Assembly: GCA_019745005.1 (NCBI GenBank)
Contig: JAIETO010000112.1
Coordinates: forward strand, 1-32,345
Origin: Burkholderiaceae bacterium
Lineage (GTDB): Bacteria; Pseudomonadota; Gammaproteobacteria; Burkholderiales; Burkholderiaceae_D
Reading direction: 5' to 3'
DNA length: 32,345 bases
Shown here: positions 10,895-19,240 of the stretch, piece by piece
Position numbering within the stretch: the first letter of the stretch is position 1
How the letters are laid out: each line of letters starts with the position of its first letter
Made by a program: the position numbers and the translations under genes
Notes under the pieces: model-generated
Seen by the model: only the letters and a program-made list of their open reading frames with translations
Databases searched by the model: none
What the model was told of the DNA's origin: nothing

Positions 10895-10945
10895 AGCCTT
10901 GAACCCGCAGAAGATTTTTTGACAGACGAAGCAATTTCACACGCC

Positions 10946-11098
10946 ATGGCGGAAGCGTTTGAAACCAATGCCGTGAACTAGGTCCCGCATGCACTGCGCG
11001 TCCCAGCACATGCAAAGCAAATGCCTGAAAATATTACTGGCGAAACAGTATTAACAGGTGTGCGCTTTCTTGCTCGTTCATTGCAATGGCAAACCTAA
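10946..11098 (+). pseudogene. Short ORF remnant interrupted by an in-frame TAG (10979-10981)
   Basis: Reads MAEAFETNAVN*VPHALRVPAHAKQMPENITGETVLTGVRFLARSLQWQT* with frame kept on both sides of the TAG. Confidence 0.35.
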
Positions 11099-11273
11099 CG
11101 CTCAAAACGGCCTAAGCAAATATGAATGCTTTAGGTTTAAACTTAACGGCGCAATTGAGTGCGTCTTAGTAAGATCGATACGACCACGTTAAATGTTCTT
11201 ATTCAAAGACGCTTTAACTAAATGGGTTCGATTTAATTACTGCAAGCCTTTTAAGAAGTCGGAATAGAACGGT

Positions 11274-11564
11274 ATGACTGCCAGAGAATTAGAAGCCGCA
11301 CTTTTATTACGATGTGTCACTGTCGCTAGAGAGGCCGGTAGAGTCGCGCAAGATCAATGTGAAGCCAACGTGTTTCGCTTGGCAGCGGCTGTAATTCGCT
11401 CGCAATTTCCTCAGCAGGCTACAAACCTCATGCAAGCAAGCAACCGTTATTTCGCGGCAAACCCGAATGAACAATTAGCTTCTGCTGAGGTGGTAAGAAA
11501 CGGCTGGGTATCAGGCCTTCCGCGCCTACGCGATGCGTTGAGCCAGCAATTGGCGAGGAAATAA
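11274..11564 (+). CDS. Hypothetical protein, 96 aa
   Basis: Ala-rich soluble ORF with coding-like composition; next ORF starts 3 nt after its stop. Confidence 0.55.
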   Translation: MTARELEAALLLRCVTVAREAGRVAQDQCEANVFRLAAAVIRSQFPQQATNLMQASNRYFAANPNEQLASAEVVRNGWVSGLPRLRDALSQQLARK

Positions 11565-11566
11565 AC

Positions 11567-11734
11567 ATGCCAACGGCACATCAATTTCAGCTTCACACAC
11601 CGCTTGCAAAAGGTTTGCGAGAGCTACTCAAACAACTTGAGGCGCGCCTTGCACTTGACCGTCCCCTGAATGTGTATTTGGCGGACTGCATGCCCGTTCA
11701 AAAAGAGGATTTAATTGATGAAGTGCCGTCCTAG
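11567..11734 (+). pseudogene. Probable truncated remnant, N-terminus resembling DUF6036/nucleotidyltransferase-type proteins
   Basis: MPTAHQFQLHTPLAKGLRELLKQLEARLALDRPLNVYLADCMPVQKEDLIDEVPS*; resembles the start of a longer family, then loses coding continuity. Confidence 0.4.
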
Positions 11735-11938
11735 GAACTGAACTTTGAGATATTGTTGCTTTCCCCCGAAGGGTAAATTGAACGGGTGGTATCGATTTTG
11801 AACATTGCTTACCCATTGAGGGATGATCTGTTAGAACAACCCTTGCTTTCGAGTTATAGTGCCTAATGATAGAGATACGCAGTTTTTATAGATTGATTAC
11901 GTCAATTAACACGGCGACCCGATCAGAAAGGGAAAGTA

Positions 11939-12955
11939 ATGGCTATTAAACGAATTAAGCATGGCGAAGAGGCTGCAGAAGTAGCAATAGGCGATAGGCT
12001 TCGATTTTCGACAAGTTTAGTCACACAAGGAGATACAAAATTCTACACGTTGACTATGCCGTCCGACATTTTAGCGAACTGCTGCTTCGCAACAAGTCGC
12101 GATGAAGATCCAATGTTAGGTTTTCAGCGAGTCTTAGATGAAAAGCGAGCTCAAGAAATCGCTGACTATATGGATTTAGGCTTCGGCACAATCCCAAGTT
12201 CGATAATCTTATCTGCTCAACTTCAAGCGAATTTTCAATTTGTGGGTGGTGGTAAAACAATCGAATTCACATACGATCCTCACGCGTTCCTGATCATCGA
12301 TGGACAGCATCGTGTGTTTGGATTCTCAAAGGCACGCACCAAACTTCGTGTGCCAGTTGTAATTTATAACGGTTTAACCAAGCAGCAGGAATCCCGTTTG
12401 TTCATCGACGTAAATACAAAACAGCGCCCTGTCCCGAGCGAACTTTTACTCGATCTCAAGAAGCTGGCTGACCTTGAAAGTGACGAAGAAGGACTTTTGC
12501 GCGAACTCTTTGACGCGTTTGGTGAGGATAATGATAGCCCCTTGCTCGGCCTGACAAGTTCTGCCGCAAAGGCAAAAGGGAAGATTTCGAGGGTGACCTT
12601 CAATGCTGCAGTAAGACCAATTTTAAGCGTATTTGTTAGTCAATCCAGCTCCACTATTTATCCGGCAATCAACAGCTATCTGAAGGCAGTAAATAAGGGA
12701 TTGATTCTGATCGGTGCTCGTGAAGCACTTATCTCACCCACTGTCTTTCGAGCGTTCTTCGAAATATTTCCGGATGTAGCGCAACGAGTCGTTGACAGAT
12801 CCGGAACAACTTTTGCCGAACACAATTTTGTCGACGTCTTAAATCCGCTTTTTGAAAAAATTAAAGCAGTAAAATTTAAGGCGCCGCCAAAGTCGCATAA
12901 GGAACTCGCTAGCGACATGCAGAAGGCTTTTAAAACAGGGTTTCTTATTGGATAA
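11939..12955 (+). CDS. DGQHR-domain protein (DndB-like superfamily)
   Basis: FLIIDGQHRVFGFSKA (DGQHR at 12299-12313) and second motif LFIDVNTKQRPVPSELLLDL. Confidence 0.88.
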   Translation: MAIKRIKHGEEAAEVAIGDRLRFSTSLVTQGDTKFYTLTMPSDILANCCFATSRDEDPMLGFQRVLDEKRAQEIADYMDLGFGTIPSSIILSAQLQANFQFVGGGKTIEFTYDPHAFLIIDGQHRVFGFSKARTKLRVPVVIYNGLTKQQESRLFIDVNTKQRPVPSELLLDLKKLADLESDEEGLLRELFDAFGEDNDSPLLGLTSSAAKAKGKISRVTFNAAVRPILSVFVSQSSSTIYPAINSYLKAVNKGLILIGAREALISPTVFRAFFEIFPDVAQRVVDRSGTTFAEHNFVDVLNPLFEKIKAVKFKAPPKSHKELASDMQKAFKTGFLIG

Positions 12956-12957
12956 GT

Positions 12958-13941
12958 ATGACGGATCTTAGCTCTTACTTTTCAGAATACCTAAGACACC
13001 GTTGGATTAAGAATATCCAAAAAGTAGAATATGATTCTTCAACCGGAATAGATGGATGGCTTGCAGAAGGCGCTTACACTTGGCTCGATGCTGGAGTGGG
13101 TGGCGCAGTATTGCAAACATCGTTGTCGTCTAACACCCTTGCGGAAGCGTTTGCGAGTGAAATCGCACGCTTCGCGTGCGCCACCTTTGAATCCCTGCTC
13201 GACACCGAAGCGGCTCCGCACAGCCCAAGTGCTCTGAGTTGGGGTCTAATTAGGTACTACTACGCGTCATTTTATGCTGCGCATGCGCTATTACGCGTAT
13301 CTGGCAAGGCGCTAACAATGATTTCTCAAAAAACAGCCAACATTATGAATTCGGTAGGTGGGTGTTACCTAGGTGTATCTCCTAATATCTCGCCAGCACT
13401 TTATCTTGTAAGCAGCGATCGCCATACCCCAGAACAACTACGACTGACAAAAGTTGGTGGCAGGGGCGGTTCGCATGAGGAAATGTGGCAGCATTTTTTG
13501 ACTCTCCTTCGCGCAGCAGAAAACGAAATCTTAGTCAAATACTCTGGTTCGACGGCCGCTTCGGAAGCATTGGAAGAGCTAAAAGACTTGCAAACAAATT
13601 TGTGTCATGACGGAAAGGTGAACGGTGCATGGCTTTCGATGGTTCGCAATAATTTGAATTATCGACACGACTACGGTGTTTGGTTTCCCTTTGGCGGGAA
13701 GAAGAAGTTCGCACAATCTTTGAGCGCTCGTATGTTGGAGTGGAAGCCATCGGCAGTTAGAACTCGAGTTGCAAAAGGCGAGCATCAACTTGGCTCTTTT
13801 GTCACCGCATGCAACGTCACCGTAGGTCTTTTGAACGGCGCGTTGGCGGATATTTCGATGCGGTCACCAAAACCAAACGCAAGTTTTGTTTCACGCTATC
13901 CATATCGACTACTGAAGCTCAGAATGATTAAGATTCCTTAG
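12958..13941 (+). CDS. Uncharacterised protein with HEPN-like features, partner of the DGQHR protein
   Basis: ATG 2 nt after the upstream stop; SWGLIRYYYASFYAAHALLRVSGK helix and MVRNNLNYRHDYG (R-N-x5-H, 13645-13668). Confidence 0.7.
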   Translation: MTDLSSYFSEYLRHRWIKNIQKVEYDSSTGIDGWLAEGAYTWLDAGVGGAVLQTSLSSNTLAEAFASEIARFACATFESLLDTEAAPHSPSALSWGLIRYYYASFYAAHALLRVSGKALTMISQKTANIMNSVGGCYLGVSPNISPALYLVSSDRHTPEQLRLTKVGGRGGSHEEMWQHFLTLLRAAENEILVKYSGSTAASEALEELKDLQTNLCHDGKVNGAWLSMVRNNLNYRHDYGVWFPFGGKKKFAQSLSARMLEWKPSAVRTRVAKGEHQLGSFVTACNVTVGLLNGALADISMRSPKPNASFVSRYPYRLLKLRMIKIP

Positions 13942-14138: not shown

Positions 14139-14489
14139 TCACTCAAAAATAATCGCCTCAATACGTGCAGCAATATCATCAACAATCTCAAGCGGCACCT
14201 TTTCTTTGAACTTCGCCTTGCGAATCTTCCAGTCCAGTGACTTCATTTGATGGCAATGCACAGCGCCTTGTGTGCTCAACCCCAAGCCCATCAGCGTCAC
14301 AACCGTACCGTGCGTTCTTGCGATATCAGCAGCGCCTTGTGAAATCGGGCATATCATCGCTAACCCGCGTTGATTAAACGCTTTTTGGCTGATTACCAGT
14401 CCAAAATGATTGCCCTTCATTTCGTGCCCAGATGCTGGGTCAAATTGCAGGTGGACGATGTCGCCGCGATTAGGAACATATGCTGCCAT
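14139..14489 (-). CDS. MazF/PemK-like endoribonuclease toxin
   Basis: MAAYVPNRGDIVHLQFDPASGHEMKGNHFGLVISQKAFN...ICPIS; internal ATG at 14489 overlaps the antitoxin stop (TAATG). Confidence 0.9.
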   Translation of the reverse strand: MAAYVPNRGDIVHLQFDPASGHEMKGNHFGLVISQKAFNQRGLAMICPISQGAADIARTHGTVVTLMGLGLSTQGAVHCHQMKSLDWKIRKAKFKEKVPLEIVDDIAARIEAIIFE

Positions 14490-14737
14490 TAGAGCACTTC
14501 CAATCCTACTGCTGGCGTGTTGTCCCATCCTTCAACCTTTGGTAGTTTGCCTTCCGGCATTTCCGCCAATAAGTCTTCCAGCTTGTATCGGCGCTTAGTA
14601 GGCGCTTCGATTGTCATGCGAGAGCCTTCCAAAGAAAGTTCAACCTGTGAGCCGTCTTGCAGATGATTTTGCTCAATAAATGCTTTGGGCACCGTCATGA
14701 CGAGAGAGCCGCCAGCGCGTCTTAAAGTTTGTAACAT
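14489..14737 (-). CDS. MazE/ChpS-like AbrB-type antitoxin
   Basis: MLQTLRRAGGSLVMTVPKAFIEQNHLQDGSQVELSLEG swapped-hairpin N-terminus; upstream of and overlapping the MazF-like toxin. Confidence 0.9.
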   Translation of the reverse strand: MLQTLRRAGGSLVMTVPKAFIEQNHLQDGSQVELSLEGSRMTIEAPTKRRYKLEDLLAEMPEGKLPKVEGWDNTPAVGLEVL

Positions 14738-14763
14738 GTTACCTCCTACGTACAATAAGTTTT

Positions 14764-15015: not shown

Positions 15016-15264
15016 ATGAACAACACAACCGCCGAAAAGCCACTTAATGTTCGACTTCCCAAAGAGCTTGCCGCTCAATTAGACGCGCTCACAAAAGCGA
15101 CTGGACGCACCAAAAGTTTTCTGGCTGTTGAGGCACTTGAGGCATATATCGATCAACAGAATTGGCAAATTGCAGAGGTGAAAGCAGGGATCGAAGAAGC
15201 CGATAGAGGTGAATTTGCGACCGATGCCGAGATGAAAGCAATCTTCGCCAAATATGCAAATTAA
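15016..15264 (+). CDS. RHH antitoxin (ParD/RelB/CopG-like)
   Basis: KPLNVRLPKELAAQLDALTKATGRTKSFLAVEALEAYIDQQNWQIAEVKAGIEEADRGEFATDAEM; overlaps the toxin ORF. Confidence 0.9.
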   Translation: MNNTTAEKPLNVRLPKELAAQLDALTKATGRTKSFLAVEALEAYIDQQNWQIAEVKAGIEEADRGEFATDAEMKAIFAKYAN

Positions 15265-15526
15265 GTGGACTAAAAGGGCTGCTCAAAATTTTGAAAAAAT
15301 CCTCGTCCACATCGCCGAAGACAAATCCAGCGCATCCAAAAAATTTTTGCTGGATGCGCTTGATCAAATTGCGAACCTTAAAAATTATCCCATGCTTGGC
15401 CGCGCTGGTCTGGTGCCGTTGACTCGAGAGTTAGTTATTTATGAGAATTACGTGGTTTACTATCGCATCAAAAAAGAGCACATTGAAATATTGCGTGTTC
15501 TTCATGCTCGTCGAAAATTCCCATAA
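15254..15526 (+). CDS. ParE/RelE-superfamily toxin
   Basis: IKWTKRAAQNFEKILVHIAED...NYPMLGRAG...RELVIYENYVVYYRIKKEHIEILRVLHARRKFP. Confidence 0.93.
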   Translation: MQIKWTKRAAQNFEKILVHIAEDKSSASKKFLLDALDQIANLKNYPMLGRAGLVPLTRELVIYENYVVYYRIKKEHIEILRVLHARRKFP

Positions 15527-17789: not shown

Positions 17790-18220
17790 GAGGGTTCCAG
17801 AAGAGCGTTGCAAGTGAGTTAGCCGCTATTGTCGGTTCTTTTGAGGTTGCGGTGCAGGGATTTAGGCTGCATTTCGATCGCTCTCACGAAGAAACATTCG
17901 TTATTGCTTACGGCAACTGTAGGAAGTTTCTTGCGTATCGATTAACTACAGCGTTCCGACCATCTTCTGAGCATTACACGATCGCAAAAATGTATTATTT
18001 ACCCAAATTCTGAAAAAACATTATTGGCTCCCGAAAAAGGCCGGTATTACATGTAACGAGACTTTTCGTATTATTCGAATCGTTTATTCATTTTAATTTG
18101 TTGTGTCCACAAACAAGCGTGGATAGATTTGTCGCCGCAAAAAATTATAAAAATTAACTTTTCTCTAATTTGCGAAGATAATACGCAGCATAACTAATGC
18201 TGTCTGAACGGGAGAGAAAA

Positions 18221-19240
18221 ATGGTGAAACAGTATACAAATTTTGTACATTGCGCTCGACTAGTCGTAATTCTTAAGTTGTTTTTTTTTGCGACCTTTGC
18301 TGACGCAAAATCCGACATAGCAAGCATCAATTCGTTCGATGAGACGTCGCGTCAAATTCAAGTGCTTTATCAATCGGAGCAATTTTCTAGCTTAGAAGAA
18401 GCGATTAATGCGCTTGTTTTTAGTACTGAAAAATTTTCATCAGGAAAACCGAAAGCGAGTGCCGTATATTGGGCATTTCGGCAGCAAATGCCGGCGCCTG
18501 GGGTAGATATCAATGAAATAGAGCGAATAAGACGATGGCGTGGCCAAGTTCCACTTTCTCCTTACACTGACTTTGCTGAAAGTCGATATTGGTATGCACT
18601 CGCTTGGAACGCTCGTGGGAATGGTTTCTCCAACAATGTCACCAATAAATCATGGCAAGCATTTAATACAAATTTGCTACAAGCAGAAAAAGTCTTGTTA
18701 GAAAGTTCTGCGTCGCTCAAAGGTACACCGCTTTGGCATCATCTACTTTTAGCAATTGCGCAAGACTCCGAAGAAACCAAGAGTAATGCAAACGACGTAT
18801 TAGTAGCCGCTGCACTTAAGTGGCCCCAATACTACGATCTGTACGAACTTCGCCTAACCCGATTAGTTCCCAAATGGGGTGGTGATTGGCAGACGGTCGA
18901 CACATTTATCGCGGCCTGGACGAATAAACAGTTCGACACCGAAGGTAGGTCGCTTTACGCACGTCTTTACATCAGTATGCAAATAAAGAATCCAGTACCC
19001 GTCAACGAGATTAGGCTGCATTGGAACGAGCTGAAAAACAGCTTCAACGACCTGATAAAACGCTATCCAGATCCAAAATTTAAAAATCTATTTGCAAGCT
19101 ACGCCTGTCTGGTTGGAGATAAAATTCAATATCGCAAATCGATCAGTGCGCTCAATTCAAAAGAATTAAATGCTAACGATTGGCTTCCAGAGGCCAGCGC
19201 GGCAAATTGCACGAGTTTAAATCAGTTCATTAATTCGTAA
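18221..19240 (+). CDS. Exported protein of unknown function (possibly DUF4034-like)
   Basis: Signal-peptide-like N-terminus, SD GGGAGAG before ATG 18221; helical repeats; ESRYWYALAWNARGNG segment; family assignment uncertain. Confidence 0.65.
   Translation: MVKQYTNFVHCARLVVILKLFFFATFADAKSDIASINSFDETSRQIQVLYQSEQFSSLEEAINALVFSTEKFSSGKPKASAVYWAFRQQMPAPGVDINEIERIRRWRGQVPLSPYTDFAESRYWYALAWNARGNGFSNNVTNKSWQAFNTNLLQAEKVLLESSASLKGTPLWHHLLLAIAQDSEETKSNANDVLVAAALKWPQYYDLYELRLTRLVPKWGGDWQTVDTFIAAWTNKQFDTEGRSLYARLYISMQIKNPVPVNEIRLHWNELKNSFNDLIKRYPDPKFKNLFASYACLVGDKIQYRKSISALNSKELNANDWLPEASAANCTSLNQFINS

What the first reader, a model, noticed from the sequence alone, without database searches (positions are those of the whole stretch)
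11939..13941. Two-gene DGQHR + HEPN-like module, candidate undescribed defence or toxin system
A DGQHR-domain (DndB-like) protein is followed 2 nt later by a 327-aa partner with a helix-rich YYYASFYAAHALLRVSGK segment and VRNNLNYRHDYG. The latter fits the Rx4-6H signature of HEPN RNases, with the polar Asn after Arg that is typical of active members. Established knowledge: DndB is normally linked to DNA phosphorothioation genes (dndCDE) and HEPN proteins are common RNase toxins. No dnd or ssp genes are visible here, so this DGQHR protein is not in its textbook context. Inference: a DNA- or nucleotide-sensing DGQHR protein controlling a HEPN RNase.
Basis: partly seen in the sequence, partly recalled or inferred. 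Interest (0 to 1): 0.8.

Follow-up and report, generated by a model that had tools for sequence, protein, structure and literature searches.

The report
DGQHR–HEPN-like two-gene defence module
Two adjacent bacterial genes, one DndB-like and one for a probable HEPN-type toxin, travel together on phages, plasmids and restriction operons (often in a known anti-phage gene slot), so they probably form a still unnamed defence or toxin module.

Summary
Window 11939-12955 encodes a true DGQHR-domain protein; 2 nt later, 12958-13941 encodes a 327-aa partner with no curated family hit. The adjacency is strongly conserved: 28 intact pairs, gaps -44 to +13 nt, and the two proteins diverge in step (Mantel r 0.93, 0 of 2000 permutations). 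The pair lies in the gpA-gpQ slot of at least eight P2-like prophages (three confirmed by profile), a known anti-phage hotspot. It also occurs in Pf phage PfAC19, on Providencia, Burkholderia and Acinetobacter plasmids, and three times beside DNA methyltransferases.

The partner is probably a HEPN protein, but not the kind claimed. The Rx4-6H histidine (H237) is kept in only 11 of 28 pairs. Invariant are W95, Y101-Y102, H173, W177, R230 and Y235, the pattern of RX4H-less class II/UPF0332/AbiV-like HEPNs. The partner profile matches a UPF0332-HEPN profile better than 200 of 200 column shuffles. Foldseek found no match to two confident AlphaFold2 models, so the fold is not proven.

Best reading: an abortive-infection or toxin module in which an NTP-binding DGQHR regulator restrains a HEPN effector. 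It is a new variant of the known ParB-superfamily + HEPN theme. Activity, toxicity and defence are inferred.

The parts
11939..12955 (+). DGQHR-domain (DndB/ParB-Srx superfamily) protein, 338 aa; proposed sensor/keeper
   Evidence: TIGR03187 150 bits (cut-off 58.85), PF14072 54.8 bits; DGQHR, QR and FxDxN invariant in 28 homologues
12958..13941 (+). 327-aa probable HEPN-type effector, RX4H-less class II/UPF0332-like
   Evidence: Conserved partner in 28 pairs; profile similarity to UPF0332 HEPNs; mostly helical AF2 model
13258..13311 (+). Helix with YYYASFYAAHALLRVSGK (Y101, Y102 invariant; H109 in 24 of 28)
13474..13476 (+). Invariant His173, candidate alternative catalytic His between helix 2 and the R-motif helix
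   Evidence: 28/28; position compared with the AbiV/AF0298 alternative His
13645..13668 (+). R230-N-N-L-N-Y235-R-H237 motif; R230 and Y235 invariant, H237 not conserved
   Evidence: R and Y 28/28, H 11/28

Best explanation
The two genes form one mobile toxin/abortive-infection module. The upstream DGQHR protein has a ParB/Srx-type NTP-binding fold and acts as sensor and keeper. The downstream protein is a HEPN effector of the RX4H-less type (H173, R230, Y235). In uninfected cells the DGQHR protein, made first from the same operon, holds the effector inactive by complex formation gated by bound nucleotide or DNA state. Infection changes that input, the effector is released, and it stops growth, most likely by attacking RNA. 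Shown here: the genes, their near-obligate pairing and co-divergence, the invariant residues, and the phage/plasmid/R-M settings. Inferred: HEPN fold (about 0.75), defence role (about 0.7), RNase activity (about 0.5), direction of control (about 0.5).
For: Every IMG/VR contig that carries this DGQHR subfamily and enough downstream sequence has the partner directly downstream; in L042 the partner is broken. Across 28 pairs the Mantel r is 0.926 with 0/2000 permutations, and the partner evolves faster (23% mean identity against 43%), as effectors tend to. The pair lies between gpA (phrog_91) and portal gpQ (phrog_68) in P2-like prophages, the old/tin anti-phage hotspot of PMC9122126. It is also in Pf phage PfAC19, on plasmids, beside a MobA-like relaxase gene in L016, and beside MTases. 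A UPF0332-HEPN profile against the partner profile scores 38.6; the best of 200 column shuffles is 22.1, the reversed profile 18.2 and a DGQHR decoy 16.8. A DndB-like protein binds ATP/GTP (PMC12704722). PF05168-type class II HEPNs paired with MNT lack RX4H but keep a modifiable Tyr (PMC7641770).
Against: No member reaches a Pfam HEPN cut-off; the best is PF05168 at 19.5 bits against 22 in the distant L028 partner, and none for the window protein. Foldseek of two confident models finds nothing, with E >= 0.18 and TM <= 0.27 against PDB. The UPF0332 similarity covers mainly helix 2. In the window itself the pair is not in a recognisable phage or R-M locus. No toxicity or defence data exist.
Confidence: 0.5

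Rival explanations
1. Plain toxin-antitoxin addiction module: the partner is a toxin, the DGQHR protein its antitoxin and autorepressor; the function is stabilisation of mobile elements and phage defence is incidental.
For: Two short coupled genes on plasmids, prophages and mobile islands; MazEF and ParDE pairs lie next door in the window; DndB is an autoregulating repressor (PMC4507180).
Against: The antitoxin would be as long as the toxin and far better conserved, unlike typical type II antitoxins; enrichment in the P2 old/tin slot points to phage exclusion.
Confidence: 0.22
2. The DGQHR protein is the effector (ParB-type NTPase or nuclease on DNA or nucleotides) and the HEPN-like protein is a non-catalytic structural or sensing partner.
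For: ParB/Srx-family relatives DndI and SspE carry ATPase domains that gate nucleases (PMC11662687); the DGQHR motifs are fully invariant while the HEPN His is not.
Against: The partner keeps invariant polar residues (H173, R230, Y235), which suggests a site under selection.
Confidence: 0.17
3. Accessory of restriction-modification systems: the pair guards methylation status, as HEPN backup effectors do in R-M operons.
For: Three same-strand MTase neighbourhoods: L004 with NotI-type REase, L009, L008; HEPN backups in R-M operons are documented (PMC3710099).
Against: Most of the pairs found, including the window and the P2-like ones, have no MTase nearby.
Confidence: 0.1
4. One reading: a canonical HEPN RNase using R230 and H237.
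For: R-x6-H is present in the window protein and H237 is kept in 11 of 28 homologues.
Against: H237 is replaced by F, R, K, Q or A in 17 of 28, although pairing and all other invariant residues persist.
Confidence: 0.08

Closest known systems
MAE_28990-type HEPN in operon with a ParB-superfamily protein and a DNA methylase (Anantharaman et al. 2013, PMC3710099)
   Same: Same logic: ParB/Srx-superfamily gene directly followed by a HEPN gene, sometimes beside a DNA MTase. Two DUF262-like/MAE_28990 operons were found here, one with a C5-MTase-like ORF upstream (L036, L037).
   Different: There the ParB-type protein is DUF262-like and the HEPN has the canonical motif. Here the first gene is DGQHR, the partner does not match PF18737 and lacks a conserved Rx4-6H.
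HEPN/MNT toxin-antitoxin, class II (PF05168/UPF0332 HEPN; PMC7641770)
   Same: Partner shares the YYA-x-F helix, an alternative His, and R-x3-[D/N]-Y with no conserved RX4H; the profile match is significant.
   Different: The partner gene is a DGQHR protein, not an MNT nucleotidyltransferase. The partner is about 200 aa longer, with a beta-containing insert between helix 2 and the R-motif helix.
DndB / DpdB (phosphorothioation and 7-deazaguanine systems)
   Same: DGQHR/ParB-superfamily domain (TIGR03187, PF14072).
   Different: Far below equivalog cut-offs (DndB 12.8 against 328 bits, DpdB 44 against 300); no dnd genes in the window and no dndC in the genome.
AbiV and AF0298-type HEPN
   Same: No Rx4-6H; [quoted passage not shown]
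   Different: No detectable similarity to the one AbiV member fetched, by single-sequence hhalign; AbiV is not described there as paired with DGQHR.

Membership tests
DGQHR domain (TIGR03187 / PF14072 DndB) | Score above curated cut-off; DGQHR pentapeptide, QR pair, FxxxN | tested here: met
   150.2 bits against 58.85; 54.8 against 29.1; motifs 28/28
DndB (equivalog) | TIGR03233 cut-off and dnd operon context | tested here: not met
   12.8 against 328 bits; no dndC in the genome
DpdB (equivalog) | NF041060 cut-off | tested here: not met
   44 against 300 bits
HEPN superfamily | Match to a curated HEPN model above cut-off | tested here: not met
   None for the window protein; best relative 19.5 against 22 bits for PF05168
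HEPN superfamily | Profile similarity to HEPN proteins beyond shuffled controls | tested here: met
   hhalign 38.6 against a maximum of 22.1 in 200 shuffles, mainly over helix 2
HEPN superfamily | Four-helix HEPN fold by structure comparison | tested here: inconclusive
   AF2 pTM 0.87 (pLDDT 82, core 86.5), mostly helical, R-motif at the end of helix 225-235, but no Foldseek match
Canonical HEPN RNase | Conserved Rx4-6H | tested here: not met
   R 28/28, His 11/28
[quoted passage not shown]
   R230, H173, Y235 all 28/28; helix positions
HEPN/MNT toxin-antitoxin | Adjacent MNT nucleotidyltransferase (GSX10DXD) | tested here: not met
   Adjacent gene matches DGQHR/DndB models, no nucleotidyltransferase model
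MAE_28990 HEPN | PF18737 match | tested here: not met
   No hit in any scanned member
Known PADLOC defence system | Model hits for both genes | tested here: not met
   DGQHR gene only weakly DpdB/DndB; partner none
Anti-phage defence system | Protects cells from phage | not testable with these tools
   Only context evidence

The most novel reading that the evidence does not exclude
The DGQHR protein is an enzymatic keeper. Like MNT on HepT, but from an unrelated fold, this ParB/Srx-fold NTP-binding protein covalently modifies the invariant Y235 of the HEPN partner, or gates it with bound NTP. Phage-induced change in nucleotide pools or DNA modification reverses this and releases the toxin. That would be a new class of modifying antitoxin and would give a function to the orphan DGQHR family.
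Probability: 0.12. Interest if true: 0.85.

Novelty: new variant of a known kind. Interest (0 to 1): 0.62.

Why it matters
Orphan DGQHR proteins outside dnd operons have no known job. A recurrent two-gene partnership in the P2 old/tin hotspot, a filamentous phage and R-M operons gives a concrete, cloneable hypothesis. It also supplies a new test case for how HEPN proteins without Rx4-6H act, and for how ParB/Srx-fold NTP-binding proteins gate toxins.

Tried and rejected
Foldseek of the full model and of the 248-aa core against PDB (and BFVD for the full model): no usable match. phmmer/hmmsearch against PDB sequences: nothing significant. Pfam, NCBIfam, PHROGs and PADLOC scans of the partner family: no family. 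Single-sequence hhalign of HEPN-T, AbiV and MAE_28990 members against the partner profile: no signal over background; only a 10-member UPF0332 profile gave one. Operator palindromes upstream: only short or imperfect repeats, no clear operator; promoter/terminator scan: not above chance. Rfam: nothing. tblastn of the partner against phage records: none for the window protein or a P2-type partner; the PfAC19 pair was found through the DGQHR gene. Distant blastn of one P2-type pair in complete E. coli genomes: none. Phosphorothioation link rejected: no dndC in the genome. The one-member Sden_1164 hit (E 0.16) was discarded as chance.

Full report
Observation. ORFs 11939-12955 (338 aa) and 12958-13941 (327 aa) are exactly as described, with TAA, 2 nt, then ATG between them. 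The first is a DGQHR protein well above curated cut-offs (TIGR03187 150 bits, PF14072 55 bits) but far below the DndB and DpdB equivalog cut-offs. The second has no Pfam, NCBIfam or PADLOC family. It is a single copy in the genome, the first gene is the only DGQHR gene there, and no dndC is detectable (the assembly is about 84% complete).

Recurrence. Homologues of the partner were found in a few percent or less of sampled gammaproteobacteria and other Pseudomonadota, on three plasmids, in a deltaproteobacterial MAG and in IMG/VR contigs. Where the upstream side is intact, the neighbour is a DGQHR gene: Acinetobacter pTR3_4, G087 and G023, G338, G823, G917. Exceptions are a Tritonibacter plasmid copy with an IS21-like pair upstream, a Microvirga fragment near transposase genes, and contig ends (L002, L020). 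In reverse, a search with the DGQHR profile found 20 viral-contig loci. All with readable downstream sequence have the partner at -44 to +12 nt; L042 carries a broken partner and L045 is cut by the contig end. In bacterial genomes 5 of 8 DGQHR hits have the partner. One close DGQHR is solitary (L025), one is fused to a restriction-endonuclease-like domain (L027), and one is remote (L029).

More distant pairs extend the family. These are a Providencia plasmid lineage (15 plasmids), Burkholderia glumae plasmids, Pf filamentous phage PfAC19, G738 and G849. Their partners align to the window family by profile (Providencia, E 6e-6; G738, 8e-8; PfAC19, 8e-9; G849, 2e-5). Over 28 intact pairs the distance matrices of the two proteins correlate at r = 0.926 (0 of 2000 permutations reach it), with mean identity 43% for DGQHR and 23% for the partner. 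The two genes therefore move as a unit and the partner evolves faster.

Setting. At least eight viral loci (L046-L052 and L057) have the P2 order with a gpQ-like portal gene downstream. In the three tested by profile, the flanks are gpA (phrog_91, origin nicking) and portal gpQ (phrog_68). That interval is the cos-proximal old/tin hotspot that Rousset et al. showed to carry many anti-phage systems (PMC9122126). Other settings: a filamentous phage next to the repressor gene, a locus beside a MobA-like relaxase gene (L016), and three same-strand DNA-methyltransferase neighbourhoods. Those are N6/N4 MTase + NotI-type REase + pair (L004), N6/N4 MTase 3 nt upstream (L009), and EcoRI-type MTase + GmrSD_N/HNH protein downstream (L008). 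In the window the pair is alone, between a peptidase M64 gene and MazEF/ParDE genes. The M64 gene is common in the genus, the pair is rare, and the M64 neighbours vary among relatives, consistent with acquisition.

What the partner is. AlphaFold2 gives a mostly helical protein: main helices at 60-81, 94-114, 172-194, 199-216, 225-235, 249-262 and 277-301, with a beta-containing insert at 117-165 (pTM 0.87, pLDDT 82; core with 25 homologues pLDDT 86.5). Foldseek found no match for either model, so the fold is not confirmed by structure. Sequence evidence favours HEPN. A profile of ten UPF0332/HEPN-T proteins scores 38.6 against the partner profile, against at most 22.1 in 200 column shuffles, 18.2 for the reversed profile and 16.8 for a DGQHR decoy. 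The distant L028 partner scores 19.5 bits against PF05168 (cut-off 22). The motif order YY-x2-[FY] ... H ... R-x3-[N/D]-Y is the same in both families.

The catalytic claim. W95, Y101, Y102, H173, W177, R230 and Y235 are invariant in 28 of 28; N231 is kept in 22 and N234 in 24. H237 is F in 12, H in 11, and R, Q, A or K in the rest. So the Rx4-6H pair is not the conserved site. Anantharaman et al. [quoted passage not shown] H173 sits in that interval. Class II HEPN/MNT toxins (PF05168) also lack RX4H but keep a Tyr that could be adenylylated (PMC7641770). In a Legionella HEPN, R and H of RX4HXY were dispensable for RNase activity (PMC11586414).

How it most likely works (inference). DGQHR is related to the ParB/Srx-fold DUF262 domain (PMC4619093), DndB is classed in the ParB superfamily (PMC10853773), and a DndB-like protein binds ATP and GTP (PMC12704722). 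DndB represses its own operon (PMC4507180). The simplest model is an NTP- or DNA-gated keeper that restrains the downstream HEPN effector and releases it on infection. TA-style addiction, DGQHR as effector, and R-M guarding remain live rivals.

Novelty. No paper in the searched library mentions DGQHR together with HEPN. ParB-HEPN-methylase operons and HEPN-MNT modules are known. This is therefore a new variant of a known kind, with an unassigned first component and an unresolved active site. The library lacks most subscription papers and all preprints, so prior description cannot be excluded.

Noticed in passing
window 14139-14755 (-): MazF/PemK toxin gene with an overlapping MazE antitoxin gene, just downstream of the pair.
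   Followed up: partly
window 15016-15526 (+): RHH antitoxin and ParE toxin genes, overlapping ends; a second TA pair next to the module.
   Followed up: partly
window 10895-11938: About 1 kb between the M64 peptidase gene and the pair holds only a 96-aa ORF and what looks like gene debris; possibly an insertion scar.
   Followed up: no
L017:8000-8956 (+): A 318-aa protein with an RNAFYGH (Rx4-6H-like) motif lies convergent to the pair in G823; possible second, unrelated HEPN protein (no Pfam hit).
   Followed up: partly
L027:787-3072 (+): 761-aa fusion of a restriction-endonuclease-like N-terminus to a DGQHR domain, directly after what looks like a Dam-type adenine methylase gene.
   Followed up: no
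L028:2498-3046 (+): Partner gene in G849 is interrupted by an apparent frameshift right after the RNQVNYRE motif; mutation or sequencing error unknown.
   Followed up: partly
L021:6871-11367: On a Providencia plasmid the pair sits between annotated umuD and umuC genes.
   Followed up: no
L036:415-2193 and L037:1462-3224: DUF262-like gene directly followed by MAE_28990 HEPN, one with a C5-methylase-like ORF just upstream: a parallel ParB-HEPN arrangement.
   Followed up: partly
window 18197-19240 (+): DUF4034 protein of unknown function, PF13226 26 bits.
   Followed up: no
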